From NCBI RefSeq assembly GCF_000426645.1, contig NZ_KE384549.1, positions 1 to 64,000 on the forward strand: a DNA stretch of 64,000 nucleotides, written 5' to 3'. This document shows, one piece after another, positions 1,113 to 19,390 of this stretch. The notes under the pieces are model-generated. The model was not told where the DNA came from. It was given only the letters and a program-made list of their open reading frames with translations, and made no database searches. The DNA is from Nakamurella lactea DSM 19367 (lineage in GTDB: Bacteria; Actinomycetota; Actinomycetes; Mycobacteriales; Nakamurellaceae). How positions within the stretch are numbered: the stretch's first letter is position 1; every line of letters starts with the position of its first letter. The translations under genes and the position numbers were made by a program.

Positions 1113-2216
1113 ATGATGACGTCCGGGCAGTCCGATCCGTCACCGGGTGCGGGAGCGGCGACAACGCCAGGAACCGAGGCGACGGAGGACTGGGATGCGG
1201 AACGGCCCGGGCGCGCCGTCATGGATGACGATCCGGCCGCTGACGACACCGCTGGTGACGACACCGCCGGTGACGACACTGCCGGTGACGACACTGCCGG
1301 TGACGACACCTCCGGCGATGAGTTCGAGCGCACCGCGCGCTGGCTCGCGAACGACCTGCGCAGCGCACGGACAGGGCCGGGCAACGCGGTGCAGGTGATC
1401 TGGGGGAGCGCGACCGACCGCGGTCGCGTTCGCAAGGTGAACGAGGACGCGCTACTTGCTGCGCCGCCGGTCTTCGTGGTGTCCGACGGGATGGGCGGGC
1501 ACGCCGCCGGGGACGTCGCCGCGGCGATCATCGTCGAGGAGTTCGGCATCGCGATCGACGGTGACGCCGGTGCCGCCATCGGCTCGGACTGGGTGCTCGG
1601 CTGCGTCCAGCGGGCCGGCCGACGGATCCGCAACGGGTCCGGCGGGGGCGCCACGGTGGTCGGCGCGGCCGTCACCGAACTGGACGGCGCCTCCTATTGG
1701 CTGGCATTCAACATCGGCGATTCCCGGGTGTACCGCAGCTTCGACGGCGAGCTGACCCAGATCAGCGTCGACCATTCGTATGTGCAAGAGCTGGTCGAGG
1801 CGGGCGAACTGCAGCGCGAGGAAATGCGCAGACACCCGCAGCGGAACGTGATCACCAGAGCGGTCGGGCTGGTCGGCGACGGCGACCTCGACTGCTGGCT
1901 GATCCCGGCGCAGGAGGGTGAGCGGCTACTGCTGTGCACCGACGGGGTGACGGGCGAACTCACCGACAGCGAACTGAGCGGGATTCTCGGTGCGCACATC
2001 GATCCGCAGCTGGCTGCCGAGGCGCTGGTCTCGTCGGCGGTGTCCGCCGGCGGGCGGGACAACGCGACCGCGATGGTGGTGGACGTGCTCACCGTCGCGG
2101 GCGGGCGGACCGACCCGGCAACGGTGCGTCATTCCGGCGGGGCCGACGGCGGCGACCCCGATGTGGAGCTCACCAGGCCGCGGGACGAACCGAGCGGTCG
2201 AGGTGGCGCGCAATGA
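1113..2216 (+). CDS. PP2C-family Ser/Thr protein phosphatase
   Basis: Metal-dependent phosphatase that would remove phosphate from Ser/Thr residues and so oppose the kinase encoded two genes later. From the ATG at 1113 (367 residues) the PP2C motifs appear in order: DRGRVRKVNEDA near 100-111, VSDGMGGHAAGD near 122-133, NIGDSRVY near 200, CTDGVTGELTDSE near 275 and GGRDNATAMVV near 312, so all metal-binding Asp residues look present. About 70 acidic residues precede the domain and include five tandem GDDT(A/S) units. Unlike PstP of mycobacteria there is no membrane segment, so it should be cytoplasmic. An alternative TTG start at 1092 has a weak GGGAG site; I prefer 1113 because of the -10 box. 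Its stop overlaps the next start (ATGA), indicating translational coupling. Confidence 0.92.
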   Translation: MMTSGQSDPSPGAGAATTPGTEATEDWDAERPGRAVMDDDPAADDTAGDDTAGDDTAGDDTAGDDTSGDEFERTARWLANDLRSARTGPGNAVQVIWGSATDRGRVRKVNEDALLAAPPVFVVSDGMGGHAAGDVAAAIIVEEFGIAIDGDAGAAIGSDWVLGCVQRAGRRIRNGSGGGATVVGAAVTELDGASYWLAFNIGDSRVYRSFDGELTQISVDHSYVQELVEAGELQREEMRRHPQRNVITRAVGLVGDGDLDCWLIPAQEGERLLLCTDGVTGELTDSELSGILGAHIDPQLAAEALVSSAVSAGGRDNATAMVVDVLTVAGGRTDPATVRHSGGADGGDPDVELTRPRDEPSGRGGAQ

Positions 2217-4207: not shown

Positions 4208-5818
4208 GTGGCTCGTAGGCCGCCGGCCCCGCCGCCCGACCTGCCGGGCTACACCGTCAGCAAGTTGCTCGGTTCCGGCGGGTTCGCCGATGTCTATCTG
4301 TACGAACAACATCTGCCGCGCCGGTCGGTGGCGGTCAAGGTGCTGATCCCCGGCGCCGCCGACCACGAGCTGCTCGCCCAGTTCGACGCCGAGGCGAACC
4401 TGATGGCGGCGCTGTCGACGCACCCGGCCATCGTCACCATCCATCAGGCCGGGATCTCCGGCGACGGCCGGCCCTACATGGTGATGGAGTACTGCTCCCG
4501 GCCCAACCTGTCGGCCCGCTATCGGGCCGAACGGCTGACCGTCGGCGAGGTACTGCGGATCGGCATCCGGCTGGCCGGCGCCGTCGAGACCGCGCACCGG
4601 GCGGGCATCCTGCACCGGGACATCAAGCCGGCCAACGTGTTGACCACCGACTTCGGGCACCCGGTGCTGTCCGATTTCGGCATCTCGGTGCAGAGTTCGA
4701 CGCCGCAGGCGCTGGCCGCCGGCGGCGGTGCGGTGGGGATGAGCATCCCGTGGACCGCGCCCGAGGTGTTCGGTGAGCAGACCGGCGGCGACGAGCGGGC
4801 CGACGTCTACTCGCTGGCCGCCTCGCTGTACACCGTGCTGGCCCGCCGCTCGCCGTTCGACCGGCCGGGCGGCCCGAACGGCTCGGCCGACCTGATCAGC
4901 CGGATCCGCTCGGCGCCGCTGCCCGCCCTGGGCCGCAGCGACGTGCCGCCGAGCCTGGAGCGGGTGATCGCCAGGGCGATGGACAAGAACCCGGCAGCCA
5001 GGTACGCGACGGCGCTGGATTTCGCCCGGGCCCTGCAGCAGGTGGAGGGGGAGCTCCGGCTGGCACCGACCCCGATCGACGTGCTGGACGAGGATCCGGC
5101 GACGGCCGCCGAGCAGCTCGGCGATTCCCCGGCCACCCGGGTGCGGGCGCTCACCGTGATCGAACCGGAACCGACCAGGGCGGCGGACGGGCCGATCGGC
5201 GCGGTGCCGCCGTCGGTGATGCCGGAGTACGACCTGCCGCCGGGTTTCCCGGCGGCGATGGCGTCGGCGAACGAGCAGACGGTGGTGCGCGAACCCGGTG
5301 ACGCCGCCGGGCGCCCCGGTTCCCTGCCTGTCCAGCACCATGGCCGCCACCACCCGGGCTCCCCGAGCACCGCACACACCGCCGGGGCGTCCGGGGCTCG
5401 TCATTCCCGTTTGCCGTTGTTGATCGGCGGCGGTGTCCTGGTGGTGGCGGCCGCGGTGGTCGCGGTGCTGCTCTCGACCCGCGGCACCGATACCGGACCA
5501 GGGCCGGTGCCGCCGTCCGGCGATCTGCTGGCCACCAGCACCCAGCAACAGGCGGTGGCCCCGCCGCCGGATCCGGTGGTCGCGCTGACCGGCACGGTGG
5601 TCGATGGCAAGTCGGTCTTCAGCTGGCGGAACCCGCGGCCGCAGACCGGCGACTTCTACTCCTGGCAGCGCACCGACGTCACCACCGGAGACGAAGGTCA
5701 GGCGAGGAATACGCAGCAAACAAGGATCACGGTGGACGCACCGGACGCCTGCATCATCGTCAAGGTGGTCCGGAACGGTCAGCCGTCGGGCGACGAATCG
5801 ACGTGTGCCGGGAGATGA
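4208..5818 (+). CDS. Receptor-type Ser/Thr protein kinase with small FN3-like ectodomain
   Basis: A 536-residue PknB-type (Hanks) kinase. The domain spans about 15-290: Gly-rich loop GSGGFADVYL at 22-31, catalytic Lys44 in VAVKVL, HRDIKPANVL near 137, DFGIS near 157 and WTAPEV as the APE motif. A 110-residue linker leads to one transmembrane helix near 402-420 (LPLLIGGGVLVVAAAVVAVLL). The outside part is only about 115 residues and, after a Pro-rich stretch, looks like a single beta-sandwich of FN3 type with two Cys; it lacks PASTA repeats. The GTG start at 4208 lies 15 nt after the FHA gene. Expected to phosphorylate the neighbouring FHA proteins, opposed by the PP2C enzyme. Substrate and ligand are inferred, not shown. 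Confidence 0.93.
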   Translation: MARRPPAPPPDLPGYTVSKLLGSGGFADVYLYEQHLPRRSVAVKVLIPGAADHELLAQFDAEANLMAALSTHPAIVTIHQAGISGDGRPYMVMEYCSRPNLSARYRAERLTVGEVLRIGIRLAGAVETAHRAGILHRDIKPANVLTTDFGHPVLSDFGISVQSSTPQALAAGGGAVGMSIPWTAPEVFGEQTGGDERADVYSLAASLYTVLARRSPFDRPGGPNGSADLISRIRSAPLPALGRSDVPPSLERVIARAMDKNPAARYATALDFARALQQVEGELRLAPTPIDVLDEDPATAAEQLGDSPATRVRALTVIEPEPTRAADGPIGAVPPSVMPEYDLPPGFPAAMASANEQTVVREPGDAAGRPGSLPVQHHGRHHPGSPSTAHTAGASGARHSRLPLLIGGGVLVVAAAVVAVLLSTRGTDTGPGPVPPSGDLLATSTQQQAVAPPPDPVVALTGTVVDGKSVFSWRNPRPQTGDFYSWQRTDVTTGDEGQARNTQQTRITVDAPDACIIVKVVRNGQPSGDESTCAGR

Positions 5819-5864: not shown

Positions 5865-6551
5865 GTGACCATGCATGTGGAGTTCTGCGGAGAGTGGACC
5901 CAACTCGATGAGCAGAAGCCGTTCACCATCGGCCGGGGAGGCGACCTGCAGATCGACGACAATCCTTACCTGCACCGGCATTTCCTGCAGGTGGCCAGGT
6001 CTGACGGGCTGTGGTGGCTGTCCAACACCGGCTCCCAGTTGTCGGCGACGGTGACCGACGGGGCCGGCTCGGTGCAGGCGTTCCTGGCCCCGGGCGCGCG
6101 GCTGCCGCTGGTGTTCGCCAACACCACGGTGCTGTTCACCGCCGGTCCCACCACCTACGAGCTCACCCTGGTCGGCAACGAGCCGACGTTCGAGGTCAGC
6201 GATCCGGCCGGGGCGACGTCCGGCGAGACCACCATCGGCCCGGTGCTGCTGACCGAGTCGCAGAAGGCGGTGATCGTGGCGCTGGCCGAACCGATGCTCA
6301 AGCGCGAGGGCACCGGGACCTCGGCCATGCCCTCGTCCAAGGATGCCGCCGCCCGGCTGGGCTGGGAGATGACCAGATTCAACCGGAAACTCGACAACGT
6401 CTGCGACAAGCTCGACCGCCGGGGCGTCCGCGGCCTGCGCGGCGGGCCGGGGCAGCTGGCGACGAATCGGCGGGCCCGGCTGGTCGAGCACGCCGTGGCC
6501 TCCCGGCTGGTGACCGTCGAGGACCTGAAGTTGCTCGATCTCAAGCTGTGA
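5865..6551 (+). CDS. FHA-domain protein with C-terminal helical, possibly winged-helix, region
   Basis: A 228-residue cytoplasmic protein. Residues 1-110 form an FHA-like fold: FTIGRGGDLQIDD supplies the Gly-Arg pair and LHRHFLQV the Ser/His-strand position, with a divergent STNGT loop (LSNTGSQLS). Residues from about 124 form a basic helical region (TESQKAVIVALAEPML..., MTRFNRKLDNVCDKLDRRG) that resembles a winged helix with the recognition-helix style spacing. The GTG at 5865 sits 7 nt after GGGAGGAGA, a strong ribosome site; an ATG two codons later is possible. It lies 46 nt after the kinase gene and ends 134 nt before the giant surface protein. It could be a phosphorylation-controlled regulator, but DNA binding is inference. 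Confidence 0.8.
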   Translation: MTMHVEFCGEWTQLDEQKPFTIGRGGDLQIDDNPYLHRHFLQVARSDGLWWLSNTGSQLSATVTDGAGSVQAFLAPGARLPLVFANTTVLFTAGPTTYELTLVGNEPTFEVSDPAGATSGETTIGPVLLTESQKAVIVALAEPMLKREGTGTSAMPSSKDAAARLGWEMTRFNRKLDNVCDKLDRRGVRGLRGGPGQLATNRRARLVEHAVASRLVTVEDLKLLDLKL

Positions 6552-6685: not shown

Positions 6686-9600
6686 GTGGAGTCACGAGTT
6701 ACCCGCCGTGCGGTGACGGTGACGCTCACCCTGGCCGGGGTCCTGGTGGCCGCGATTGTCGGCTTCTTCGCGACCCGCTCGCCCGGATACGCCAGTACCT
6801 CGGTGCAGGCGGAGCAACGGGCGGCCTGGGTCACCAGCAACAAGGACCTGATGCTCGGCCTGCTCAACCAGCAGACCCACGAGGTCGAGTCGCCGGTCGT
6901 GCTGGACAGCCAGGACACCGAACTGCTGCAGAACGACGCGTCCGTGGTGGTGGTGGATCGGGTGCAGCACACCCTGCGCACGCTCGATCCGACCACGGCG
7001 GCGCTGTCCGGCAAGGTGACGATCCCGGAGAGCGCCGACGTGGCGATCTCCGAGACCACGGTCGCCGTCACCGATCTGCGCACCGGCAGCATCTGGGTGC
7101 TGCCGACGGCCGGTCTCGGCACCGACGACCTGACCACCGAGAAACCGAACGGCACGGCCGCGCCCGGTGCGGTGGCCACCGTCACCGGGGGGACGGTGAC
7201 GGTCGCAGCGCCCGGCGCCGACGCGCTCACCGTGCTCACCGCCGGCGGCGGCGACGCCGCCGGGCAGGGCAGTGATGCCCAGGGCAGCGATGTCCAAGGC
7301 ACCGTCCCGCTGCCGGACGGCCGGCTGACGGCTGCCTCCGAGCAGCATCCGACGCCGGTCTCGATCACCGCGGTCGGCGCGGTCCCGGTGGTGCTTGACG
7401 CTCCGGCCAACCGGATCATCGTGCAGACGGCCACCGGACCGCTCGCCTTCGGTCTGCCGGACGGCACCGCGCATCCCGTCCTGCAGCAGCCAGGGCCGGC
7501 CGCCGACAGCGTGCTGATCGGCACCGACACCGCGCTGCTCCGGGTGAACCTGGCCACCGGCGCCGTGCAGTCGCAGCCGACCACCGGCAGCGGCAGCGCG
7601 GCGGCGCCGGTGCTGGTCGCCGGCTGCGCCCACGAGGCCTGGTCGGGCGGCACGCCGACCTATCTGCTGTGGTGCGGCGATACCCCGACGGTCAGGGACA
7701 TCAGCGGGGTGGTCGACGCGAGCCGGTTGATCTTCCGGGTCAACGGGGACACCGTGGTGCTCAACGACGTCACCACCGGTAATTCCTGGGTGATCGACGA
7801 CGACATGGTGCTGGTGAACAACTGGGACCAGATCAGGTCTGACGAGAACGACGTGGAGAAGTCCGAGACCGGCGTACAGGGCCAGGCGGACCGGTTGACC
7901 ACCGCCCGCACCGACTGTTCCAAGGGGATGGCGCCGCCGCATCCCAAGGCCGACAGCTACGGCGTGCGGACCGGCACCGCGACGGTGCTGCGGGTGCTGG
8001 ACAACGACCAGAGCTCCAGCTGTTCGATCGCGGTGATCAGCCAGGTCGACGGCCCGGAGGGCGTGGCCACCGTCATCGACGGGGGACAGGCATTGCAGGT
8101 GGCGCCGCCGCTGAACGCGACCGGGCCGATCCAGCTGAGCTACACCGTCGATGACGGCGCCGGGCACGACGCCGCGGCGAAGGTCACGGTGAACCCGGTG
8201 AGCCAGGAGAAACCGGTGCCGCCGAAGAAGGTGCGCGACTCGGCGGCCACCGTCATCGTCGGTGGCACCATCACCACCGACGTTCTCGGCGACTGGATCT
8301 CGCCCACCGGCGACGCCCTGTTCCTGACGGCCGCCACCAGCAACAACCCGGACGACCGGATCTCCTACAGCCCGGACGGCAACATCACCGTCGGCGACAC
8401 CGGAACGGCCGGTCTCACCAAGAAGACGATCAACTTCACCGTGTCGGACGGCACCAACAGCGTGCCCGGCCGGCTGACCGTCGAGGTGGTCGACGAGGCG
8501 AAGGCGAACCCGGTCGCCTCACCCGTGTACGTCTCGGGGGTGGTCGGCGAGCAGATCGAGGCCGAGCCGCTGAAGTCGGTGCTGTGGCCGGGATCGGAAG
8601 AGGTGACGCTCACCAAGGTCGCCCCGCAGAAGGCGACGCCGGGGCTGAGCGTGACGCCCGACCGGCAGGCCGGCACCGTCACCCTGGTGGGGGCGAAGGC
8701 CGGCAGCTATTACCTGGACTACGAGGTGGCCGCCGGCGACAAGCAGGCCAAGGGCGTGCTGCGGGTCGACGTCCGGGACAAGCCGGTCGAGCAGCTGCCG
8801 CCGGTCCCGATGACGGACGTCGCCTACCTGCCGACCGGCGGCGAGGCGCTGGTCGACCTGACCGCCAACGACACCGACCCGGCCGGCGGGATCGTCGCCG
8901 TGCAGAGCATCGATGCCGCCGCCGGCGACGCCGCTGGCGGCGCTGCGGCCCGAGGCCTGATCATCCAGACCATCGACATGCATCTGGCTCGGATCTCGGC
9001 GCGGCACCCGTTGCCGGCGGCCGGGATCTGGCTGACATACACGGTGTCGGCCGGCGGGCCGTCGGCCGTCGGGTGGCTGCATGTGGTCCCGGTGCCGCAG
9101 CCGGCCGAACCGATGTCGCCGATCGCCTCGCCGATCCAGGTGTCGGTCCGGGCCGGCGACGCCATCACCATCCCGGTGGCCCAGCATGCCGTCGATCCCA
9201 GTGGGGACCTGGTCCGCCCGGTCGCCTTCGCCAAGGACGCGATCGGCGCCGACCAGGGGCTGCTCTTCGCGACCGGCGATTCGGTGCGCTACATGGCGCC
9301 GGCCTCCGGTCCGGTGGCGAAGGGCAAGACCCTGCGCACCCAGTACACGGTGACCAACCAGGCGGGTAAGCGGGCGTCAGCGAACCTGGCCATCACGGTG
9401 GTCCCGACCGGTGACAACGCGCCCCCACAGGCGCCGCCGACGGCGCAGGCCAGGGTGTTCGCCGGCGGCACCGTCGACATCCCGCTGCCGATCGACGGCA
9501 TCGACCCGGACGGCGACTGGGCGATCGCCGCGGCGGTCGCCGAGCCGCCGAACCTCGGCAGTGCCGCGGTCTCCGGCACCTCGACGATCCGCTACAGCGC

Positions 9601-12600
9601 CTTCGACAAGCCGGGTCTTGACACCTTCACGTACACCATCAGCGATCCGTTCGGCGGGACCGCAACCGGGACGGTCGATGTGCTGGTGGCGCCACTGCCG
9701 AAGACGGCAGAACCGCCGGTCGCACCCGATCTGCAGGCCGTGGTCGCGCCCGGCAAGGCGATCGCGGTCAACGTGCTGGACGAGGTCACCGATCCCGGCG
9801 GCCTCGCGGTGAGTTTCGCCGATCCGGCGTTCTCGTCGGCGGGGTCGCGCGGCGGCCTGCAGCTGAGCGTGCGCGACTCGACGATCGTGGCGAAGGCCGG
9901 GGCGTCGCCGGGCACGGTCGCCCTGCAGTACAACGTGAAGAACGCCCGCCAGCGCACGGCGTCCGGCACGCTGACCATCAAGGTCGACCCGAACGCCCCG
10001 AAGGTGTCGCCGACGGCCCAGGACGCACTGATCGTCGACAGCATGATCAGCCCCGACCACCAGTCGGCCCGGGTCGACCTGACGGCCTGGACGGCCAACC
10101 CTGGCGGTCTCCCCGAGGACCTCAAGGCCGCGGTGCCCCAGGTGTCGCAGGGCCGGCTGACGGTGACCGGCAAGCAGACGGTGTCGGTGAAGCTGGCCGA
10201 ACGCCGGCAGGTGCTGGCCTATCAGGTGACCAATGCCGACGGGCTCAGCGCCGAGGCCTTCCTGATCGTCCCGTCCCGCACCGAGCTGAACATCGCCGCG
10301 CCGCCGCAGAACGGGCCGCAGCAGAAGCCGGAGACGCCACCGGATCCGGAGCCGGAGGTGTACGCGCCGAAAGCCTTGAAGCCGCTGGTGGTGGACGCCG
10401 GCACCGAGGTGAGGGTCAAGGTCGCCGATTACGTCGGCGGCACCAAGGACGGCCGGAAGGTCACCCTGCCGGCGAACGGCAGCAACAAGGCCAGCACCGG
10501 CGAGCTGAGCAGGGTGGACGCCGACACCCTGCTCTGGACGGTGCCGGAGGACGGCGACGGCAAAGCACAGCTGAACGTCACCGTCACCGACGGGGTGGCC
10601 AAGCCGGTCCGGACCGGGATCCAGGCCCGGATCAGGGCCAAGAAGCCCAAGGCACCGGTGTTCCAGAACACCGAGGTCCAGGTCGAACCGGGTACCTCAT
10701 CGGCCCCGACCTCATTGTCGGACCTGGTGACCTACGACCCCGACAAGATGTCGAACCTGAAGTTCAGCCTGAAGAGCAGCAGCAGCAACGGGATCACCGC
10801 CCGGCTGGCCGGCGACAAGTTCACCGTCAGCGCGCCGGCGTCGACGGCCAAGGGCACCCAGGCGACCTTCAAGGTGGCGGTGAACGACGGGGTGAACCCG
10901 GAAGTCGTCACCGATATGCCCGTCCAGGTGATCAGCTCGACCAAGCCGCCGATCACCTTGTCGGAGCAGACGGTCGAGGCGCTGGCCGGGCAGCCGAAGA
11001 CGGTGAACGTGCTCGACGGCGCCGGCAACCCGTTCGGCGCCGACCAACCGCTGAAGCTGATCAGCGTCGGCACCGGCGCCGGATACTCGGTCGACTTCGA
11101 CGGATCGGGTTCGGTGACCGTGACCCCGGACCCGGACTACACCGGACAGCTGACCGTGCCGTTCGTGGTGGCCGATGCCTCCGGCGACCCCGACCGCAAC
11201 GTGCAGTCGCAGCTCACCGTCACCGTCCGCGGTAAGCCCGATGCCCCTGGGGTGCCGACCAAGCTGGAGGTGGGTGACGGCACCGCAACCGTGCAGTGGA
11301 CGGAGCCGGCCGACAACGGGTCGCCGATCACCGGATACACGGTGTCCGCCAACGGTTTCAGTCAGGACTGTGCGGCCTCGCCGTGCACCCTCAAGGGGCT
11401 GACGAACAACTCCACCTACAGCTTCACGGTGATTGCGCACAACGGGGCCGGCGAATCGCCGGCGTCCAGGGGGTCGGCCGGCATCCGGCCGGACACCTCG
11501 CCGGAGCCGCCGGGGCCGCCGAGACTGACCGAGGGCGACCGGACGCTCGCCGCGAGCTGGCAGCCGCCGGCGAACAACGGCTCGCCGATCTCCGGTTACG
11601 AGGTGCAGATCACCCCGGCGCCGTCGGGTTCCCCCGGCACGGTCAAGGTGGCCGCCGCCGTGCACGACCGGGACTTCGCCCACCTGGAGAACGGCACCCA
11701 GTACACGGTGAAGGTCCGGGCGCTGAACGCCTCCGGCACGCCGAGCGACTGGTCGCCGGGCACCTCGGTGGTGCCGGCCGGCAAGCCTGGTACCCCAACG
11801 GATGTGAGGCCGAACGCCGCCACCAAGGCGGGTGCGGCCAAGCGCATCGACGTGTCCTGGACGGAGGCCGACGACGGCGGCGATCCGCCGCACTACCGAA
11901 TGACCTGGCACGGTGACGACGGCAGCGGTGATGCGGTCGATCTGCCGGTCGGTACCACCTCCGCCCACATCGACCCGGCGAAGCTCGGCGTGACCTACAC
12001 GGTGACGGTGGTGGCCTCCAACAAGGCCGGGTCGTCCGCCGCCTCGGCCCCGGCATCGGTCAAGCCGTACACCGCGCCCGGCCAGGTCTCCGACCTGACC
12101 GCAACGGCCACCGGCAACAACAACGAGGTGACGCTCGCCTGGTCGGCCGCGTCGTCGAACGGCTACCCGATCACCACGTATCAGTACTCGCTGGGCGGGG
12201 ACGCCTGGAAGGACACCGGCAGCGACCAGCCGGGCGTCAAGCCCGACGGTCTGACGAACGGGACGGCGTACACCTTCCGGGTGCGGGCCTGCACGGCCGC
12301 CCCGGACGAGGGCGCCAACTGCGCCGAGCCGTCGAACACCGAGGACGCCAAGCCGTACGGCCCGCCCGCCGCGCCGCCGAACCTGACCGCCGACGCGGAC
12401 GCGGCGGCCGGCCAGCTGGTGCTGCACTGGGATGCCGCCGACGGCAATGGCCGTGACATCAAGGGGTATCAGTACGCGATCGCCGGTAGCGGCGACTGGA
12501 AGGACACCGGCAAGGGGACCGACACCTCGCTGACGGTGCCAGGTGACAACGGCACGGCGTACACCTACGTGGTCCGGGCGATCAACGGCGAGTCGGCCGG

Positions 12601-13489
12601 CAACCTCGGCGACCGCTCGAACGAAGTCACTGCGACCCCGTACGACACGCCTGGCGCCCCCACCGGCCTGACGGTGGACCGGACCGGCAGCAACAACCAG
12701 GTGAAGTTCAACTGGACCGACGGCCCGGCCAATGGCCGGCCGATCAGCAGCTACGACTACACCACCGACGGTGGCAGCAGTTGGCGTGGGATCACCAACG
12801 GCGGGACCGCGACAGTGCAGTCGGACGGGAAGACGCTGACCAACGGCAGCACGTACACGTTCCAGGTCCGTGCGCACACGGCTGCCCCGCAGCGCAACGT
12901 CTCTGCGGGGTCGAACACCAACACCGCCACGCCGTACGGCCCGGTGCCGAAACCCAACCCGTCCAAGAGCGGCGCGACGCAGGACTCGGTGTCTTTCACC
13001 TGGCCAGAGCCCGCCAGCAACGGCATCGGCGGTTACACCTATTCGGTGAACGGCGGCGGAGCACAGGCAGGTCGATCCGCAACCATGGGGACCTCCTGCG
13101 GTAAGTCCGTGACGATCTCGGTAGTGGCGATAGATTCGCAAGGACACCGCAGCGAAGCCGGTACCCAGCCCGGGAGTGCTGACGCTTGCCCGAACCCCTC
13201 CATCCAGGTCGCTGCCGGCGACGGTGTCAGCACTTCCACCTGCGATATCCGCTGCAATTACATCGCCTTCACGTACTCGCACTTCTCCGGCGGCGACTAT
13301 CACGCAAAGGTCTATACGGACGGTTCACTCTTCCGTGAATACGACTTCAGCCTCGGCGCCGGTGGTGGGAAGCATCAGTTCACCGCCTACCTCGGCGATC
13401 ATTCCATCGACAACAAGGTTCGAGTCAAGATCGTGGTTTCCGGGGCAGACAGCGCCAGCGACGAGCGAGACTTCCCCAACACCGGCTGA
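6686..13489 (+). CDS. Giant membrane-anchored Ig-like / fibronectin type III repeat protein
   Basis: A 2267-residue surface protein. A single hydrophobic segment near residues 10-28 follows a basic N-terminus and probably acts as an uncleaved anchor. Residues 40-400 are beta-rich with repeated short strands, compatible with a propeller-like domain. About 410-1510 carries a run of cadherin-like/bacterial Ig modules, recognised by recurring VLDND, YTVDDGAG and FTYTISDPFGG-type strands. About 1517-2170 holds seven FN3 domains, each with the APGxP(T/S)xL...W(T/S)xPxxNGxPIxxY pattern. The last 95 residues form a Cys-containing module (CDIRC). GTG start with an AGGAG site at proper distance. It is flanked by signalling genes upstream and MoxR/DUF58 downstream, suggesting a kinase-controlled cell-wall or adhesion component. 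Confidence 0.88.
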   Translation: MESRVTRRAVTVTLTLAGVLVAAIVGFFATRSPGYASTSVQAEQRAAWVTSNKDLMLGLLNQQTHEVESPVVLDSQDTELLQNDASVVVVDRVQHTLRTLDPTTAALSGKVTIPESADVAISETTVAVTDLRTGSIWVLPTAGLGTDDLTTEKPNGTAAPGAVATVTGGTVTVAAPGADALTVLTAGGGDAAGQGSDAQGSDVQGTVPLPDGRLTAASEQHPTPVSITAVGAVPVVLDAPANRIIVQTATGPLAFGLPDGTAHPVLQQPGPAADSVLIGTDTALLRVNLATGAVQSQPTTGSGSAAAPVLVAGCAHEAWSGGTPTYLLWCGDTPTVRDISGVVDASRLIFRVNGDTVVLNDVTTGNSWVIDDDMVLVNNWDQIRSDENDVEKSETGVQGQADRLTTARTDCSKGMAPPHPKADSYGVRTGTATVLRVLDNDQSSSCSIAVISQVDGPEGVATVIDGGQALQVAPPLNATGPIQLSYTVDDGAGHDAAAKVTVNPVSQEKPVPPKKVRDSAATVIVGGTITTDVLGDWISPTGDALFLTAATSNNPDDRISYSPDGNITVGDTGTAGLTKKTINFTVSDGTNSVPGRLTVEVVDEAKANPVASPVYVSGVVGEQIEAEPLKSVLWPGSEEVTLTKVAPQKATPGLSVTPDRQAGTVTLVGAKAGSYYLDYEVAAGDKQAKGVLRVDVRDKPVEQLPPVPMTDVAYLPTGGEALVDLTANDTDPAGGIVAVQSIDAAAGDAAGGAAARGLIIQTIDMHLARISARHPLPAAGIWLTYTVSAGGPSAVGWLHVVPVPQPAEPMSPIASPIQVSVRAGDAITIPVAQHAVDPSGDLVRPVAFAKDAIGADQGLLFATGDSVRYMAPASGPVAKGKTLRTQYTVTNQAGKRASANLAITVVPTGDNAPPQAPPTAQARVFAGGTVDIPLPIDGIDPDGDWAIAAAVAEPPNLGSAAVSGTSTIRYSAFDKPGLDTFTYTISDPFGGTATGTVDVLVAPLPKTAEPPVAPDLQAVVAPGKAIAVNVLDEVTDPGGLAVSFADPAFSSAGSRGGLQLSVRDSTIVAKAGASPGTVALQYNVKNARQRTASGTLTIKVDPNAPKVSPTAQDALIVDSMISPDHQSARVDLTAWTANPGGLPEDLKAAVPQVSQGRLTVTGKQTVSVKLAERRQVLAYQVTNADGLSAEAFLIVPSRTELNIAAPPQNGPQQKPETPPDPEPEVYAPKALKPLVVDAGTEVRVKVADYVGGTKDGRKVTLPANGSNKASTGELSRVDADTLLWTVPEDGDGKAQLNVTVTDGVAKPVRTGIQARIRAKKPKAPVFQNTEVQVEPGTSSAPTSLSDLVTYDPDKMSNLKFSLKSSSSNGITARLAGDKFTVSAPASTAKGTQATFKVAVNDGVNPEVVTDMPVQVISSTKPPITLSEQTVEALAGQPKTVNVLDGAGNPFGADQPLKLISVGTGAGYSVDFDGSGSVTVTPDPDYTGQLTVPFVVADASGDPDRNVQSQLTVTVRGKPDAPGVPTKLEVGDGTATVQWTEPADNGSPITGYTVSANGFSQDCAASPCTLKGLTNNSTYSFTVIAHNGAGESPASRGSAGIRPDTSPEPPGPPRLTEGDRTLAASWQPPANNGSPISGYEVQITPAPSGSPGTVKVAAAVHDRDFAHLENGTQYTVKVRALNASGTPSDWSPGTSVVPAGKPGTPTDVRPNAATKAGAAKRIDVSWTEADDGGDPPHYRMTWHGDDGSGDAVDLPVGTTSAHIDPAKLGVTYTVTVVASNKAGSSAASAPASVKPYTAPGQVSDLTATATGNNNEVTLAWSAASSNGYPITTYQYSLGGDAWKDTGSDQPGVKPDGLTNGTAYTFRVRACTAAPDEGANCAEPSNTEDAKPYGPPAAPPNLTADADAAAGQLVLHWDAADGNGRDIKGYQYAIAGSGDWKDTGKGTDTSLTVPGDNGTAYTYVVRAINGESAGNLGDRSNEVTATPYDTPGAPTGLTVDRTGSNNQVKFNWTDGPANGRPISSYDYTTDGGSSWRGITNGGTATVQSDGKTLTNGSTYTFQVRAHTAAPQRNVSAGSNTNTATPYGPVPKPNPSKSGATQDSVSFTWPEPASNGIGGYTYSVNGGGAQAGRSATMGTSCGKSVTISVVAIDSQGHRSEAGTQPGSADACPNPSIQVAAGDGVSTSTCDIRCNYIAFTYSHFSGGDYHAKVYTDGSLFREYDFSLGAGGGKHQFTAYLGDHSIDNKVRVKIVVSGADSASDERDFPNTG

Positions 13490-13509: not shown

Positions 13510-14475
13510 ATGACCATGACCCCCGACCACGCCCAGTGGTTCGCCCAGACCTTCTCCTCGTTGGTGGGCAACGTCGGCCAGGCCGTTCTGGGCAAGCCGC
13601 GGACCATCTCGTTGGCGTTCACCTGCATGCTCAGCGAGGGCCACCTGTTGCTGGAGGATTTCCCGGGCACCGGCAAGACCTCACTGGCCAAGGCGATGTC
13701 GGCAACTGTGCAGGGCAGCAACTCCCGGATCCAGTTCACCCCCGACCTGCTGCCCTCCGACGTCACCGGCGTCACCATCTACGACCAGAAGAGCGGCAGC
13801 TTCGACTTCCACAAGGGCCCGATCTTCGCCTCCGTGGTGCTGGCCGACGAGATCAACCGGGCGTCACCGAAGACGCAGGCCGCGCTGCTGGAGGTGATGG
13901 AGGAATCCAAGGTCACCGTCGACGGCGTCAGCCATGAGGTCGGGAATCCGTTCATGGTGATCGCCACCCAGAACCCGATCGAGCAGGCCGGCACCTACAA
14001 GCTGCCGGAGGCGCAGCTGGACCGGTTCCTGATGAAGACCTCGCTGGGCTACCCGGATCACGCCGCCACGGTGGAGATCCTGGCGGCCAGCAGTACCAAG
14101 ACGCACGTCCGGACCGTCAGCCCGAAGATCACCACGTCGGCGGTGGTCGACATGGCCGAACTGGCGGCCACCGTGCACACCGATCCCGCGGTGCTGGACT
14201 ACATCGCCCGGATCGCCGAGGCGACCAGGACCACCCCGGAAACCACCGTCGGTGTCTCGGTCCGCGGCGCGCTGTCGCTGACCAGGGCCAGCCGGACCTG
14301 GGCGGCCGCCCACGGCCGGCACTACGTGGTCCCGGACGACGTCAAGGATCTGGCCGAACCCGTTCTGGCGCACCGGATCCTGCTGGATGCCGAGGCCGAA
14401 TTCACTGGCACCACCGTCGCCTCCGTACTGCACCGGATCCTCGGCGAGGTCTCGCCACCCGAGCGGCGGCGATGA
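13510..14475 (+). CDS. MoxR-family AAA+ ATPase
   Basis: A 321-residue cytoplasmic ATPase of the MoxR group, which act as chaperones in maturation of secreted or membrane complexes, usually together with DUF58/VWA proteins. Walker A is GTGKT at 53-57 (in EDFPGTGKTSLAKAM); Walker B is VVLADE near 109-114, followed by INRASPKTQAALLEVMEE, the MoxR signature; sensor 1 is FMVIATQNPIEQAGTYKLPE; the C-terminal lid domain extends to the end. The ATG is 21 nt after the giant protein's stop; a second in-frame ATG lies two codons on. The DUF58 gene starts 20 nt after the stop, so the two proteins are almost certainly co-expressed and act together. Confidence 0.95.
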   Translation: MTMTPDHAQWFAQTFSSLVGNVGQAVLGKPRTISLAFTCMLSEGHLLLEDFPGTGKTSLAKAMSATVQGSNSRIQFTPDLLPSDVTGVTIYDQKSGSFDFHKGPIFASVVLADEINRASPKTQAALLEVMEESKVTVDGVSHEVGNPFMVIATQNPIEQAGTYKLPEAQLDRFLMKTSLGYPDHAATVEILAASSTKTHVRTVSPKITTSAVVDMAELAATVHTDPAVLDYIARIAEATRTTPETTVGVSVRGALSLTRASRTWAAAHGRHYVVPDDVKDLAEPVLAHRILLDAEAEFTGTTVASVLHRILGEVSPPERRR

Positions 14476-14494: not shown

Positions 14495-15817
14495 ATGACA
14501 GCGCCGGCACCCGCACCGGCGCCGACCGCCGAGCACCCGCACCCGACCGAATCCGGTTGGGAGCACCATCGCGTCACCGAGAACGCCGGTGGCACACCGG
14601 TTCCGGACACCACCGGGACGAATGCCTGGTCCACCAGGATCCAGGCGCCGGCGCCGTCGCTGCGACGATTGTTCGCACCGGTCACCGGTACCGGGGCTAC
14701 CGCGATCTGCGGGCTGCTGCTCTGCCTGGTGGTGGCGCTGGTATTCGGGTGGAGCGAGTTCATGGTGGCCGCGGTGGCCATCGCGGCCCTGCTGCTGGTC
14801 GCCAGCCTGTTCCTGATCGGCCGCAGTTCCTATGCGGTCGAGGTGGATCTGCAGTCGACCAGGGTGGTGGCCGGCGAACGTGCCACCGGAGCATTGACGG
14901 TGCGCAACAGTGGAACCCGGCGGCTGCTGTCCTCCCGGATGGAGCTTCCGGTCGGTGGGTCGATGGCCTCGTTCCGGATCCCCGGGCTGGCCGGCGGCGC
15001 CGAACACGAGGACCTGTTCGTGATCCCGACCGCGCGCCGCGCGGTGATCCAGGTCGGCCCGGCGCTGTCCGTGCGCGGCGACCCGTTGGGGTTGCTGCGG
15101 CGTCAGGTCCGCTGGACCGTCGCCAGCAACTTGTTCGTGCACCCGAGAACGGTTGCGCTGCACGGCGCCGCCACCGGCATCGTCAAGGACCTGGAGGGTC
15201 AGCCGACCAAAGACCTGTCCAGCAACGACGTCTCGTTCCACGCGCTGCGCCAGTACGTCCCCGGCGACGACCGGCGCTACGTGCATTGGCGCACCTCGGC
15301 GCGCACCGGGGTGCTGATGGTGCGGCAGTTCGAGGAGACCCGGCGCACCCACCTGGCGGTGGCACTGTCGGTGGACCCCGACGAGTACGGCACGGTCGAG
15401 GAGTTCGAGTTGGCGGTGAGCGTCGCCGCGTCGCTGGGCGCGCAGGCGATGCGGGAGGAGCGGCCGGTGACCGTCGGCGCCGGCCGGGGCCAGGTCCGGG
15501 CCAGATCGGGCCGCACCCTGCTGGACGGCTTCTCCGGGATCGACCCGCAGCCCGGCGCCGGCATCCTGGTGGCCGGGCGGCTCACCGCGGCCGCGGTGCC
15601 CAACGCGTCGGTCGGCATGCTGATCACCGGCCCGAAGCCCGACGCGTTGACCATCCGGCGCTCCGGCATGAGTTTCGCGGTGGGCGTCAGGGTGGTGGCG
15701 ATCAGGGTGCTGGCCGGCTCGAAGCCGACGCTCGGCGCCATCGACCGGGTCGATGTCGCCACCATCGGCGCCCTGGACGACCTGCCGAAGGCACTGCGCC
15801 GATTGCGTGCGGCGTGA
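14495..15817 (+). CDS. DUF58 domain-containing membrane protein
   Basis: A 440-residue protein. After a Pro/Thr-rich 60-residue N-terminus there are two adjacent transmembrane helices (about 68-85 and 88-108), then a beta-rich ectodomain-like region and the DUF58 signature YVPGDDRRYVHWRTSA near 254-269, followed by VRQFEE. In the family this domain relates to VWA folds and partners a MoxR ATPase. I chose the ATG at 14495 because it begins just after the MoxR stop and keeps a normal N-terminus; an upstream in-frame extension would overlap MoxR by 90 nt. The transglutaminase-like gene starts 10 nt downstream. The MoxR-DUF58-transglutaminase trio is a known arrangement whose exact substrate is unclear. 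Confidence 0.93.
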   Translation: MTAPAPAPAPTAEHPHPTESGWEHHRVTENAGGTPVPDTTGTNAWSTRIQAPAPSLRRLFAPVTGTGATAICGLLLCLVVALVFGWSEFMVAAVAIAALLLVASLFLIGRSSYAVEVDLQSTRVVAGERATGALTVRNSGTRRLLSSRMELPVGGSMASFRIPGLAGGAEHEDLFVIPTARRAVIQVGPALSVRGDPLGLLRRQVRWTVASNLFVHPRTVALHGAATGIVKDLEGQPTKDLSSNDVSFHALRQYVPGDDRRYVHWRTSARTGVLMVRQFEETRRTHLAVALSVDPDEYGTVEEFELAVSVAASLGAQAMREERPVTVGAGRGQVRARSGRTLLDGFSGIDPQPGAGILVAGRLTAAAVPNASVGMLITGPKPDALTIRRSGMSFAVGVRVVAIRVLAGSKPTLGAIDRVDVATIGALDDLPKALRRLRAA

Positions 15818-15827
15818 GGGCCGCGAC

Positions 15828-18137
15828 ATGAGAGACAGGTTGCCGGTCGGCCGGATGCTGGTCGACGCCACCGCGATCGCGGTGTTGGTGGCGGGTGCCG
15901 GGCTGGCGTTCGGACCCGCCTACGGTGGCTCGCGGTTTCTGCTGGCGCTGGGACTTGGCGCCCTGGTCGGCGGCCTCGCCGCGCTGATCCCGGCGCTGGC
16001 CCGCTGGCCGGCCGTTCTCACCCTGCCGCTGGCCGCCGTCGGCTATCTGCTCGTCGGCGGCGCCGCCGCGGTGCCGCGCAGCACCGTGGGTGGGGTGCTG
16101 CCCAGCGGCGAGTCGATCCGACTGCTCTCGGTCGGCGTCATCACCTCCTGGAAGCAGATGCTCACCGTGGCGGTCCCGGTGGGCAGCGCCGGGTCGCTGT
16201 TGCTGCCGGCCTTCCTCACCTCGTTGGTGCTGACCGCCGCCGGGGTGTCGGTCGCGTTGCGGTCCGCCCGGCCGCTGACGGCCCTGCTCGCCCCGGCGCT
16301 GATGGCCGCCGGCGCCGCCCTGCTCGGCACCGGCAGTGCCTTCCACCCGGCGATCGCCGGCACCGCGCTGGCACTGGCCGCCCTGCTGTGGGCCGGCTCG
16401 CGGCGGCGGGCAGACGGCCGTCCGGGTCTGGACCTACGGCGGCCGCTGGCGCTGGTCGCGTTGCTGATCCCGGCCGTCGCGGCGGGCGTGTTCCTCGGAC
16501 CCGGGCTGCTGCCGGACGCACAGGCCAGAACCACCGTGCGTGAGCTGGTGGAGCCGCCGTTCGACCCGTCGACGCTGCCCAGCCCGCTCAGCGGCTACCG
16601 CTCCTACGTAAAACTGCAGACCAAGCAGGTGCTGTTCACCGTCGACGGGCTGCCGGCCGGGGTGCCGCTGCGGCTGGCCACCCTCGACGCCTGGGACGGC
16701 CGGATCTATTCGGCCTCGGCCGATTCCGGGGTGTTCACCCGGGTCGGCGATCGACTGGCGTCGGTCCCGGCGGGCGAGCGGGCGGACCTGACGGTGACGG
16801 TCGGCGACTATCACGACGTCTGGGCACCGACCGCCGGATACCTGGCCGCGGTCGAGTTCTCCGGCGCGGACGCCGATCGGCTGCGGGAGGGCTTCCGGTA
16901 CAACCGGCAGACCGGTGCGGCGCTGGTCACCAGCATGCTCACCGAGGGCAACAGTTACCACCTGGAGGTGTCCGTGCCGACCCAGCCGACGGTCGCGGAG
17001 CTGGCCGGCGCATCGGTCGACGATTCGGCGCCGATGGGCGACATCAGCGACGCGGTCCCGGCCGAGGTGAAGACCAAGGCGGACGAGTGGACGGCCGGCG
17101 CCAAGGACGAGATCGGGATCATCGAGGCGATCCGCAAGCACCTGCACGACGACGGCTGGTTGTCCCACGGCGACAACTGGAAGGGCGTACCGGGTGGCCA
17201 CGGCGCCGACCGGATCCGCCGGCTGCTGACCGCGAAATACATGTTCGGTGACGCCGAGCAGTACTCCGTCGCGATGGCGTTGATGTTGCGGTCCAAGGGC
17301 ATTCCGGCACGAGTGGTGATGGGCTTCGCCGGTCGGGACACCGCAGGGACGACGGCCTTCACCGGGTCGCAGATGACGGCCTGGGTGGAGGTGCCGTTCA
17401 CCGGCGCCGGCTGGGTGTCGTTCGACCCGCTGCCGCAGGAGGGCAAGGACCTGCCGGCGCCGTCCGATGACCCCGAGGCGCAGGGCGCCGCGCCGAAGCA
17501 GCGCCAGCCACCGCCGCCGCCGATCCCGCCGAAGGACGCCGACCAGAACGAGGCACAGTCGCCGCCGGACCAGCAGCCGAAGGAGCCGGACCAGAACACC
17601 CCCCGGGATGACGAGAACCCGTCGCCGGTGGCGGTGCCATGGGGCTGGATCGGGGCCGGCACCGGTGCCGGCCTGCTGGTGCTGCTGCCGATCGGCGCGA
17701 TCCTGTTGCTGAAGTCCCGCCGCAAGAAGCGGCACGGGGCGGGCAGCCCGGACCAACGCATCGCCGGAGCCTGGTCGCACCTGATGGACACCGCGGCCGA
17801 CTTCGGCCGGCGGCCGAACGCCGGCACCACCAGGGCCGAGGCCGCCGAGCAGCTCGCCGCCGCGTTCGCCCCACCACCTGCAGGCGTAGCGGGGTTGTCC
17901 CAGCCAGGCGTAGCGGGGTTGTCCCAGGGGCCGCCCGTGGCACCGGCGCCCGGCGTCTTGGTGTTGGCCCGCCGGGCCGACGCGGTCGTGTTCGCGCCGG
18001 ACCCGGTCGATCCACAGCAGGCCGATCGCTACTGGGCCGACATGGAATCCCAGCTGGCGTCGATCAAGAACACCCAGTCGGGCTGGCGCAGGTTCCGGGC
18101 CCGGCTCTCCCTCGCGTCGCTACGGAAACGGACGTGA
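15828..18137 (+). CDS. Transglutaminase-like membrane protein, catalytic Cys and His replaced
   Basis: A 769-residue protein with about seven transmembrane helices in residues 15-225, an extracytoplasmic transglutaminase-like domain whose core is at about 455-540, a Pro/Asp/Glu-rich linker, one more helix near 604-625 and a cytoplasmic tail. The core keeps the family frame (GDAEQYSVAMALML, GIPARVVMGF, AWVEV, GWVSFDP), but the position of the nucleophile Cys is Ala476 and that of the catalytic His is Thr517; only Asp533 remains. It is therefore probably not a protease or transamidase and may be a binding domain. A 24-nt direct repeat at about 17880-17930 duplicates AGVAGLSQP. The stop overlaps the next GTG start (GTGA). 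Confidence 0.9.
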   Translation: MRDRLPVGRMLVDATAIAVLVAGAGLAFGPAYGGSRFLLALGLGALVGGLAALIPALARWPAVLTLPLAAVGYLLVGGAAAVPRSTVGGVLPSGESIRLLSVGVITSWKQMLTVAVPVGSAGSLLLPAFLTSLVLTAAGVSVALRSARPLTALLAPALMAAGAALLGTGSAFHPAIAGTALALAALLWAGSRRRADGRPGLDLRRPLALVALLIPAVAAGVFLGPGLLPDAQARTTVRELVEPPFDPSTLPSPLSGYRSYVKLQTKQVLFTVDGLPAGVPLRLATLDAWDGRIYSASADSGVFTRVGDRLASVPAGERADLTVTVGDYHDVWAPTAGYLAAVEFSGADADRLREGFRYNRQTGAALVTSMLTEGNSYHLEVSVPTQPTVAELAGASVDDSAPMGDISDAVPAEVKTKADEWTAGAKDEIGIIEAIRKHLHDDGWLSHGDNWKGVPGGHGADRIRRLLTAKYMFGDAEQYSVAMALMLRSKGIPARVVMGFAGRDTAGTTAFTGSQMTAWVEVPFTGAGWVSFDPLPQEGKDLPAPSDDPEAQGAAPKQRQPPPPPIPPKDADQNEAQSPPDQQPKEPDQNTPRDDENPSPVAVPWGWIGAGTGAGLLVLLPIGAILLLKSRRKKRHGAGSPDQRIAGAWSHLMDTAADFGRRPNAGTTRAEAAEQLAAAFAPPPAGVAGLSQPGVAGLSQGPPVAPAPGVLVLARRADAVVFAPDPVDPQQADRYWADMESQLASIKNTQSGWRRFRARLSLASLRKRT

Positions 18138-19390
18138 CGGCCGCCCCGGTGGTGGACCGGTACTGCCCGAACTGCGGGGCCAGGCTGACGGCGACCACCG
18201 AGACCTGCCGGAACTGCGGCGCTCCGACCCCGCAGCGCTCGCTCCGGCTGGACGAGACGGACACGGCCCCGGTATCGCGCCGGGTATTGGCCACCGCCAT
18301 CGACGTCGCGCCGCTGGTCCTGCTACTGGCCGGGCTGCTGACCGCTGCGGCGGTCACCGAGCTGGCCTCCTGGGTGCGATTGACGTTGCCGGCCTTGATG
18401 ATCGCCTGGTGCGCGCTGGTCTGGATCTGGCAGTCGGCGACCGGGCAAGGGCCGGGGAAGGCAGTTGTGGGCCTGCGGGTGGTCGACGAACGCACCGGCA
18501 GCCGGATCGGCGCGCTCCGGACGCTGGGCCGGATGGGGACCGAGGCCGGCTCGGTGATCGGCACGCTCGGCCTCGGCGCGTTGTCCTACCGATGGGATCC
18601 GTCCGGCCGGGAGCAGACCTGGTGGGACCGGGCCGCCGGGTCCAGGGTGATCGCCGAGAGTGCCGACGGTTTCACGGTTTTCGACCCCGCTGCCCAATCC
18701 AGGTGGACACCGGTGCCGCCGGCCCCGTCAGTAGTGCCGGGTCCGCAGGCCCAGCCGGGTCCGTCAGCCCAGCCGGGTCCGTCAGCCCTGCCGGTGCCGC
18801 CTGCCCAGACGGTGCCGCCTGCCCAGCCGGGGCCGTCAGCCCGGCCTGGCTCGTCAGCTGCACCGCCCACCGCACCGGACGGACCAACGACCGTGGTGCG
18901 CCGGGAAGACATCGCGGCCGCCGACCCGTTGGCGGAGGCGCCGACGACGGTGGTCGGCCGGCACGCCCTGTCGGACGCGCCGACCTCCGAGCATCCACGC
19001 GCGCTGATCGACGACGCCGACGCCACTGCGTCGCGACCGGCCGCCGACGCCAGGCCGGCCACCGCGACCCTGGAATGGGATACCGGCGCACGGGTGACCG
19101 TCGGCGGCGTCGTGCTGGTGGGTCGCGACCCGCAACCCGTCCCCGGCGAGCAGGTGGACCGGCGACTGGCGGTGGGCACCGACTCGGTCGGGGTGTCCAA
19201 GACCCATCTGGCGCTGACCATCACCACCGCCGGAATCACCGTGGTGGACAGGCATTCCACCAACGGAGTGCGGATCTCCGGCGCCGATGACGAGATCCTG
19301 CTCTGTCCGCCGGGGGAGCCGACGCCGGTCCGGGAAGGCGACCGCATCCTGTTCGGCGGACGGTCGATCCTGGTGGCTCCGAGCGGCTGA
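18134..19390 (+). CDS. Zinc-ribbon / RDD / FHA membrane protein
   Basis: A 418-residue protein that closes the envelope-signalling block. The N-terminus has a four-cysteine zinc ribbon (Cys11, 14, 25, 28: CPNCG...CRNCG). An RDD domain follows at about 45-180, with RRVLATAIDVAPLVL starting the first of its membrane helices and GQGPGKAVVGLRVVDERTG typical of the family. Residues 190-290 are a Pro/Gln/Ser-rich linker with repeated QPGPSA units. The C-terminal FHA domain (about 310-415) has VLVGRDP, SKTHLAL and HSTNGVRI. It probably recruits phosphothreonine proteins to the membrane, which fits the kinase and phosphatase in the same operon. Translation is coupled to the preceding gene by a 4-bp overlap. 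Confidence 0.9.
   Translation: MTAAPVVDRYCPNCGARLTATTETCRNCGAPTPQRSLRLDETDTAPVSRRVLATAIDVAPLVLLLAGLLTAAAVTELASWVRLTLPALMIAWCALVWIWQSATGQGPGKAVVGLRVVDERTGSRIGALRTLGRMGTEAGSVIGTLGLGALSYRWDPSGREQTWWDRAAGSRVIAESADGFTVFDPAAQSRWTPVPPAPSVVPGPQAQPGPSAQPGPSALPVPPAQTVPPAQPGPSARPGSSAAPPTAPDGPTTVVRREDIAAADPLAEAPTTVVGRHALSDAPTSEHPRALIDDADATASRPAADARPATATLEWDTGARVTVGGVVLVGRDPQPVPGEQVDRRLAVGTDSVGVSKTHLALTITTAGITVVDRHSTNGVRISGADDEILLCPPGEPTPVREGDRILFGGRSILVAPSG

What the first reader, a model, noticed from the sequence alone, without database searches (positions are those of the whole stretch)
17240..17430. Transglutaminase-like protein without catalytic Cys and His
In the aligned core GDAEQYSVAM the nucleophile Cys position is Ala476, and TAWVEV has Thr517 at the catalytic His; only Asp533 remains. 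The rest of the fold is well kept, so the domain is probably a binding or structural domain rather than a hydrolase.
Basis: partly seen in the sequence, partly recalled or inferred. Interest (0 to 1): 0.6.

Follow-up and report, generated by a model that had tools for sequence, protein, structure and literature searches.

The report
Dead transglutaminase in the PFNA operon
A membrane protein that looks like a protein-crosslinking enzyme has lost all or most of the residues needed for catalysis, and so have its relatives across Actinomycetota, including the bifidobacterial protein that papers call a transglutaminase or cysteine protease, so it probably binds something instead of cutting or joining it.

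Summary
In the 769-aa protein at 15828-18137, Ala476 and Thr517 stand where active TgpA (PDB 6g49) has its catalytic Cys and His; Asp533 is kept. The protein contains no cysteine. The fold is intact (AlphaFold model against 6g49: Z 22).

The loss is old and shared. The gene ends the core of a kinase - giant Ig/Fn3 protein - MoxR - DUF58 - TG cluster, the layout of the published PFNA operon of Bifidobacterium, whose Tgm is described as a transglutaminase, "presumably a cysteine protease". In 20 of 20 PFNA loci read from the presumed bifidobacterial family, Cys, His and Asp are all replaced. In a profile-based class-wide census of 119 genes, 74 kept Cys and all 74 kept His and an acid; 45 had lost Cys and 14 of those kept His. 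Giant-Fn3 matches lay beside 16 of the 45 and 0 of the 74. Trees without the catalytic columns need one Cys change. The domain stays under purifying selection, and all seven Nakamurella genomes with such a gene also keep a C-H-D paralogue.

Best reading: a conserved extracytoplasmic pseudoenzyme used as a binding or assembly module of the MoxR-DUF58 membrane machine. The partner, perhaps the giant Fn3 protein, is inferred and untested.

The parts
15828..18137 (+). TG-like membrane protein (PFNA 'Tgm' type): 7 probable N-terminal membrane helices, extracytoplasmic pseudo-transglutaminase domain, one C-terminal membrane helix, cytoplasmic tail
   Evidence: topology inferred from model helices and positive residues
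17247..17261 (+). GDAEQ (residues 474-478), the GDxEQ signature; codon 17253-17255 = Ala476 at the catalytic Cys position
17376..17378 (+). Thr517 at the catalytic His position
17424..17426 (+). Asp533, the one catalytic-triad residue retained here
17196..17213 (+). GHGADR (residues 457-462), H458 and R462 invariant in 129 of 129 PFNA-type rows
   Evidence: H458 is not exclusive:
14495..15817 (+). DUF58 protein (start 14495 inferred)
13510..14475 (+). MoxR AAA+ ATPase
6686..13489 (+). giant secreted or anchored protein, Big_9 and Fn3 repeats (2267 aa)
5865..6551 (+). small protein without Pfam match between kinase and giant protein (start inferred); matches to it occur in a part of the PFNA loci
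4208..5818 (+). Ser/Thr protein kinase with the usual motifs (Pkb2 counterpart)
2213..4192 (+). FHA-domain protein (start inferred)
1092..2216 (+). PP2C phosphatase with the usual motifs
18134..19390 (+). zinc ribbon - RDD - FHA membrane protein, start overlaps the TG stop codon (start inferred)

Best explanation
The protein is a pseudoenzyme: a TgpA-like transglutaminase-fold domain held outside the cytoplasmic membrane that no longer does Cys-His-Asp chemistry. It has been kept for its ability to bind. Shown: the residues are missing, the fold and operon are kept, the loss is old and shared, and selection still acts on the domain. Inferred: the old substrate cleft recognises a ligand without modifying it, most likely the giant Big_9/Fn3 protein encoded three genes upstream, or a cell-wall peptide. 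Through the membrane helices and cytoplasmic tail it then passes this to DUF58 and the MoxR ATPase, which the operon's kinase, phosphatase and FHA proteins regulate. About 0.93 that the domain has no transglutaminase or cysteine-protease activity; about 0.7 that its role is binding or scaffolding within the MoxR-DUF58 machine; about 0.3 that the giant Fn3 protein is the direct partner.
For: Missing residues and zero cysteines. Intact fold: Z 22 to TgpA 6g49, and weaker matches (Z about 5) to the Rad4 TG-like domain (that XPC is inactive is from PMC10318531 passages). Class-wide census of 119 genes: 74 Cys genes, all 74 with His and all 74 with Glu or Asp; 45 non-Cys genes, His kept in 14 and an acid in 24, as expected once Cys is gone. 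Phylum sample, the 29 best-scoring loci besides the window: 24 have Cys and all 24 keep His and acid. Context: 15 of 17 GDxEQ genes have a giant-Fn3 match upstream (13 at E<1e-30, 2 weaker), against 0 of 74 Cys genes and 1 of 28 other non-Cys genes; 60 of the 74 and 43 of the 45 have at least 3 kb before the frame. Presumed bifidobacterial family: 20 of 20 Ser at the Cys site, no His, no Asp. One Cys change on three trees built without the catalytic columns (support of the non-Cys clade 98 SH-aLRT; 100/99 bootstrap/SH-aLRT; 96 SH-aLRT). Median dN/dS 0.19 for the domain against 0.31 for the N-terminal membrane part over 121 non-independent pairs. In Nakamurella, 7 of 7 genomes with a PFNA-type gene also carry a C-H-D paralogue, and so do 10 of 10 without.
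Against: No binding partner, activity or localisation was measured. Some lineages of the same clade keep the His and put Asp at the Cys site (D-H-D), which could hint at other chemistry. Conserved residues around the old site (H458, R462, Asp/Asn475, E477-Q478; H447 in part) could be a ligand site or a new active site. Two of 17 GDxEQ genes have no giant-Fn3 match. The second non-Cys group (28 genes) mostly lacks the giant protein, so binding it cannot explain why Cys was lost in the first place. The census rests on a profile built from Cys-less Nakamurella sequences, with E <= 1e-30 and a capped number of candidates scored per genome, so distant Cys-type genes are under-sampled.
Confidence: 0.7

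Rival explanations
1. Decoy or regulator of the active paralogue: the dead domain binds the same substrate as the genome's intact C-H-D TgpA-type protein and protects or sequesters it.
For: All 7 Nakamurella genomes with a PFNA-type gene also carry a C-H-D paralogue. Scaffold residues A518-W519-x-E521 and G528-W529 are shared with nearly all Cys-type rows, E477-Q478 with a part of them.
Against: Of the 20 bifidobacterial-family genomes with a high-scoring PFNA gene, 7 returned a second match; 5 of those were read and are C-H-D. So an active relative was not seen in the other 13, though one could lie below the threshold. The GDxEQ type tracks the giant Fn3 gene.
Confidence: 0.12
2. Retooled enzyme: the conserved His458, Arg462, Asp/Asn475, Glu477 or, in part, His447 form a new active or metal site and the domain catalyses something else.
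For: H458 and R462 are invariant in 129 of 129 PFNA-type rows and E477-Q478 too; 475 is Asp or Asn in nearly all. D-H-D state in some lineages.
Against: H458 also occurs in 6 of 76 Cys-type rows of the class and 12 of 24 Cys-type loci at phylum scale, so it is not a gain tied to Cys loss. H447 is His in only 47% of the 19 class-wide PFNA rows. The Cys-site residue varies (Q, A, E, D, S, G).
Confidence: 0.08
3. Decaying gene: the domain is a relic without function.
For: Loss of two or three catalytic residues in many members.
Against: No stops inside the matched frames, fold residues conserved, median dN/dS 0.19, and the same place after Fn3, MoxR and DUF58 in 68 of 80 named loci, the other 12 being short upstream.
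Confidence: 0.02
4. Alignment or sequencing artefact: the true Cys and His are elsewhere or were misread.
For: None found.
Against: No cysteine in the protein; independent assemblies of many species agree; PDB alignment unambiguous.
Confidence: 0.01

Closest known systems
PFNA operon of Bifidobacterium (pkb2, fn3, aaa-atp, duf58, tgm; plus prpC, fha) and its Tgm
   Same: Same core gene order kinase - giant Fn3 protein - MoxR - DUF58 - TG (PMC8430577 and PMC6803598 passages); the TG proteins of the presumed bifidobacterial family share the GDxEQ core and lack the triad too.
   Different: In the window PP2C and FHA genes lie upstream of the kinase and a zinc ribbon-RDD-FHA gene follows TG; bifidobacteria put prpC after tgm (seen in 12 of 20 loci). 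The window TG keeps Asp533; the bifidobacterial-family ones do not. The papers describe Tgm as an enzyme.
TgpA of Pseudomonas aeruginosa (PA2873, PDB 6g49)
   Same: TG fold (Z 22), extracytoplasmic TG domain on a polytopic membrane protein, in a predicted operon PA2875-PA2872 (PMC3507681 passages); the window protein matches the Pfam family TgpA_N named after it.
   Different: TgpA keeps the Cys-His-Asp triad and has in vitro transglutaminase activity (PMC3507681); here Cys and His are gone.
Second actinobacterial non-Cys group (RGTSEQF-type) behind MoxR-DUF58
   Same: Same family and MoxR-DUF58 context, Cys lost, on the same single-change branch.
   Different: Ser/Ala/Thr/Val at the Cys site, often Leu/Phe at the His site, usually no giant Fn3 match.
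Known inactive TG-fold proteins (EPB42/band 4.2, Rad4/XPC)
   Same: TG or papain-like fold with lost catalysis (PMC10318531 passages; Rad4 structural matches at Z about 5).
   Different: Eukaryotic, and not part of a MoxR-DUF58 operon (recalled).

Membership tests
Transglut_core (PF01841) / transglutaminase-like fold | Profile match over the whole core | tested here: met
   E 5.2e-16, 59.3 bits against cut-off 23
Transglut_core (PF01841) / transglutaminase-like fold | Fold | tested here: met
   VIA-align Z 22.0 to 6g49, 253 residues, rmsd 3.6
Transglutaminase or cysteine protease (active enzyme) | Cys-His-Asp/Glu catalytic triad | tested here: not met
   Ala476, Thr517, Asp533; no Cys in protein
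Transglutaminase or cysteine protease (active enzyme) | Enzymatic activity | not testable with these tools
   needs a bench assay
TgpA-like membrane protein | TgpA_N region with N-terminal membrane helices and C-terminal membrane helix | tested here: met
   TgpA_N E 2.2e-15; helices in model; topology itself inferred
MoxR - DUF58 - TG operon (MRP-type MoxR context) | MoxR and DUF58 genes directly upstream | tested here: met
   window 13510-14475 and 14495-15817
PFNA operon | Core order kinase, giant Fn3 protein, MoxR, DUF58, TG | tested here: met
   window order, with one extra small gene between kinase and giant gene. In the presumed bifidobacterial family 18 of 20 loci show five separate frames; in L208 Fn3 and MoxR matches fall in one open frame, and L202 is cut by its contig end
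PFNA operon | Phosphorylation of MoxR by the kinase and cytokine binding by Fn3 | not testable with these tools
   reported for Bifidobacterium longum in PMC8430577 / PMC6803598 passages; not tested for Nakamurella

The most novel reading that the evidence does not exclude
One ancient loss of the catalytic Cys created a large family of dead transglutaminase-fold receptors across Actinomycetota. One branch of it became the docking or tension-sensing head of a MoxR-DUF58 machine that handles a giant Ig/Fn3 surface protein under kinase control, so the 'transglutaminase' of the PFNA operon is really a surface-protein receptor.
Probability: 0.25. Interest if true: 0.8.

Novelty: new variant of a known kind. 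Interest (0 to 1): 0.6.

Why it matters
The PFNA operon is studied as a possible sensor by which bifidobacteria recognise host cytokines, and the papers seen treat Tgm as a transglutaminase or cysteine protease. If PFNA Tgm proteins in general lack the triad, models built on crosslinking or proteolysis need replacing with binding models, and experiments should look for a ligand. More widely, the MoxR-DUF58-TG gene trio recurs in bacteria with unclear function. A natural branch in which catalysis is dispensable while the rest of the module stays says that the TG domain's recognition role, not its chemistry, can be the conserved function.

Tried and rejected
1. Idea that an invariant His (H458) was gained together with Cys loss. 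It looked so on the tree (one change each), and I first read, which lists only the three commonest letters, as 'no His in Cys-type rows'. The recount gives His in 6 of 76 such rows, and phylum sampling gives 12 of 24 and 6 changes of state. Dropped as a gain.

2. Idea of independent losses in the GDxEQ and RGTSEQF groups. All three trees need a single Cys change. Rows dropped: five long-branch or odd rows (L003, L152, L189, L190, L191) were left out and PFNA rows thinned to every third; L348 and L352 were left out as repeats of genes already held. The direction (loss, not gain) follows from rooting on Cys-type rows, not from the count.

3. The 80 named loci are biased: the scan patterns TAWVEVPF and MxGD[QA]EQ themselves exclude His at one site or Cys at the other, and only the best 80 of 347 relatives were kept. 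The 80 of 80 result is given only as breadth. The profile-based sets (26/64/66, 79/80) carry the argument. The census covers all 121 matches listed except the window's own, with two rows of one gene merged (119). Of one search's matches only the 30 fetched loci (29 besides the window; 2 of these, L348 and L352, are genes of the class census) were read.

4. The first alignment misread minus-strand loci; replaced.

5. The model's coordinates are not exposed, so distances of H447, H458 or D475 to the old active site were not measured.

6. A simple pattern for the MoxR Walker A motif gave no match; the sequence reads PGTGKT there.

7. Printed searches for earlier notice of the missing triad: transglutaminase-like + pseudoenzyme + catalytic triad, 0 papers; TgpA, 5; DUF3488 + transglutaminase, 1; transglutaminase + MoxR + inactive + catalytic, 3: one seen in passages; PMC7159879 and PMC8195603 seen as listing only; PFNA/tgm papers. 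In PMC6803598 the terms 'cysteine' and 'active site' do not occur. Only an open-licence library was searched; subscription papers, including the 2018 Anaerobe paper on Pkb2, were not seen.

Full report
What was checked. The finding points at 17240-17430. The frame is 15828-18137 on the + strand, 769 aa. Pfam gives Transglut_core and TgpA_N. A phmmer search of the PDB finds one distinct sequence at E up to 1, TgpA of Pseudomonas aeruginosa (6g49, 6g4h), whose Cys, His and Asp align with A476, T517 and D533. The protein has no cysteine at all.

Structure. AlphaFold2 with 40 aligned sequences gives mean pLDDT 84.1 and pTM 0.71; most of the TG core is in the 90s, while residues 441-450 and 451-460 average 77 and 60. 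VIA-align places residues 251-539 on 6g49 with Z 22.0, rmsd 3.6 over 253 residues; next come other TG-fold proteins at Z about 10 down to 5, including Rad4. From the model helices and the positions of positive residues I infer seven N-terminal membrane helices with the TG domain outside, one C-terminal helix and a cytoplasmic tail.

Surroundings. Upstream lie PP2C, FHA, a Ser/Thr kinase, a small protein without Pfam match, a 2267-aa Big_9/Fn3 protein, MoxR and DUF58; downstream a zinc ribbon-RDD-FHA protein whose inferred start overlaps the TG stop codon. Kinase and phosphatase motifs and the MoxR Walker B motif are present. [quoted passage not shown] a 2025 paper says 'a predicted transglutaminase' (PMC12607495, passages) and a 2023 one 'transglutaminase' (PMC10688814, passages).

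The genus. In 17 genomes of the genus (the window's included), PFNA-type TG genes occur in 7, with second copies in 3. All 10 genes are non-Cys (A, S or Q) and non-His (T or S) with Asp kept. All 17 genomes also have a C-H-D paralogue; that it too stands behind MoxR and DUF58 was checked only in the window's genome (L230). The window's own genome has four PF01841 proteins: C17 with C-H-D, C15 apparently intact by eye, the window's A-T-D, and C1 with A-S-D.

Named relatives. A genome-contig scan with ten Nakamurella sequences found 347 relatives and kept 80, many of them Microbacteriaceae, and one Bifidobacteriaceae MAG. 80 of 80 lack Cys (Q 37, A 34, E 7, D 1, S 1) and His (T 40, S 35, L 2, A 1, Q 1, D 1); Asp is kept in 52 of 80. 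The scan patterns favour such sequences, so this shows breadth, not frequency. Fn3, MoxR and DUF58 matches are present in 68 of 80 loci; the other 12 hold at most 3.2 kb upstream of TG. A kinase match is present in 55 of 80, flank permitting.

Presumed bifidobacteria. A family found by a 16S probe was searched with a profile: 24 of 61 genomes match, 20 of them at 375 bits or more. In 18 of these 20 loci kinase, Fn3, MoxR, DUF58 and TG appear as five frames in this order; in L208 the Fn3 and MoxR matches share one open frame, and L202 is cut by its contig end. 12 of 20 have PP2C after TG, as published for some species. 20 of 20 have Ser at the Cys site, 20 of 20 lack His (E, A, D, T or Q), 20 of 20 lack Asp (Y, H or F). 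So the published Tgm type very probably lacks the whole triad; the named B. longum protein itself was not read. Among the lower-scoring matches read from that family, L191, L193-L196 and L198 keep C-H-D; L189, L190, L192 and L197 are degenerate.

Profile-based census. A search of 148 genomes of the class with a profile of ten Cys-less sequences, E <= 1e-30 and a capped number of candidates per genome, listed 121 matches. All were read except the window's own, with two rows of one gene merged: 119 genes. 74 have Cys; 74 of 74 have His and 74 of 74 an acid (E 71, D 3). 45 have lost Cys; 14 of these keep His and 24 an acid. Of the 45, 17 are GDxEQ-type (GD or GN), 15 with a giant-Fn3 match upstream (13 at E<1e-30, 2 weaker), and 28 belong to other non-Cys types, 1 with a weak Fn3 match. 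Of 74 Cys genes none has it; 60 of them have at least 3 kb before the frame, so in 14 the test is weak. Outside this census three RGTSEQF-type loci also had weak Fn3 matches (L220-L222). MoxR and DUF58 both appear near 102 of the 119. At phylum scale the 29 best loci besides the window were read: 24 Cys, all with His and acid, and 5 non-Cys (GxxEQ-type), two of them already in the class census.

Tree. With the catalytic columns removed, Cys against non-Cys needs one change on 93 rows (non-Cys clade SH-aLRT 98, PFNA clade 99), on 56 rows (100/99 and 100/100) and on 83 rows including other classes (96). His needs seven changes. Read with the Cys-type outgroup as root, Cys was lost once, deep in the phylum, and His and Asp drifted afterwards. 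The D-H-D members (L137-L139) look like stages that kept His.

Constraint. For close pairs of PFNA genes the median dN/dS is 0.19 for residues 405-546 and 0.31 for residues 5-227 (121 non-independent pairs). In PFNA-type rows G443, G448, G457-H458, R462, G474, E477-Q478, R495, G499, W519, E521 and W529 are invariant or nearly so. H458 is not special to the dead clade: 6 of 76 Cys-type rows of the class and 12 of 24 Cys-type loci at phylum scale have it.

How it likely works. Shown: the residues of the classical mechanism are absent, the fold and operon are kept, and selection acts. Inferred: the domain binds. The partner is best guessed as the giant Fn3 protein, because the GDxEQ type is the one that stands beside it; signalling would run through DUF58 and MoxR, which the kinase phosphorylates in Bifidobacterium (PMC8430577, PMC6803598, passages). 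Against this guess: 2 of 17 GDxEQ genes show no giant gene, and the other non-Cys genes mostly lack it too.

Novelty. Pseudoenzymes with a TG fold are known (PMC10318531, passages). I found no paper in the searches that notes the loss in PFNA or in MoxR-DUF58 TG proteins; these papers were seen as listings, abstracts or passages only, and the library holds open-licence papers only. It is a new variant of a known kind, and it questions a published functional description.

Noticed in passing
5865-6551: Small protein without Pfam match between kinase and giant Fn3 gene, with an FHA-like N-terminal stretch by eye; matches to it occur in a part of the PFNA loci.
   Followed up: partly
L003 / L231 (window genome, contig C1): A third MoxR-DUF58-TG set in the same genome is also catalytically empty (A-S-D) and lies beside a kinase on the opposite strand.
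   Followed up: partly
L039-L043, L148-L157 in part, L219-L225: A second, widespread non-Cys TG group (RGTSEQF, Ser/Ala/Thr/Val at the Cys site, often Leu/Phe at the His site) behind MoxR-DUF58, mostly without the giant Fn3 gene.
   Followed up: partly
L137, L138, L139: PFNA-type proteins with Asp at the Cys site and the His and Asp kept (D-H-D); whether this is a stage of decay or other chemistry is open.
   Followed up: no
L022, L023, L024: Three Nakamurella genomes carry a second, diverged PFNA-type TG gene (35-40% identical to the window's).
   Followed up: no
L208:4616-11197 (minus strand): In one bifidobacterial-family locus the Fn3 and MoxR matches lie in a single open frame of 2194 aa; fusion or missing stop not examined.
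   Followed up: no
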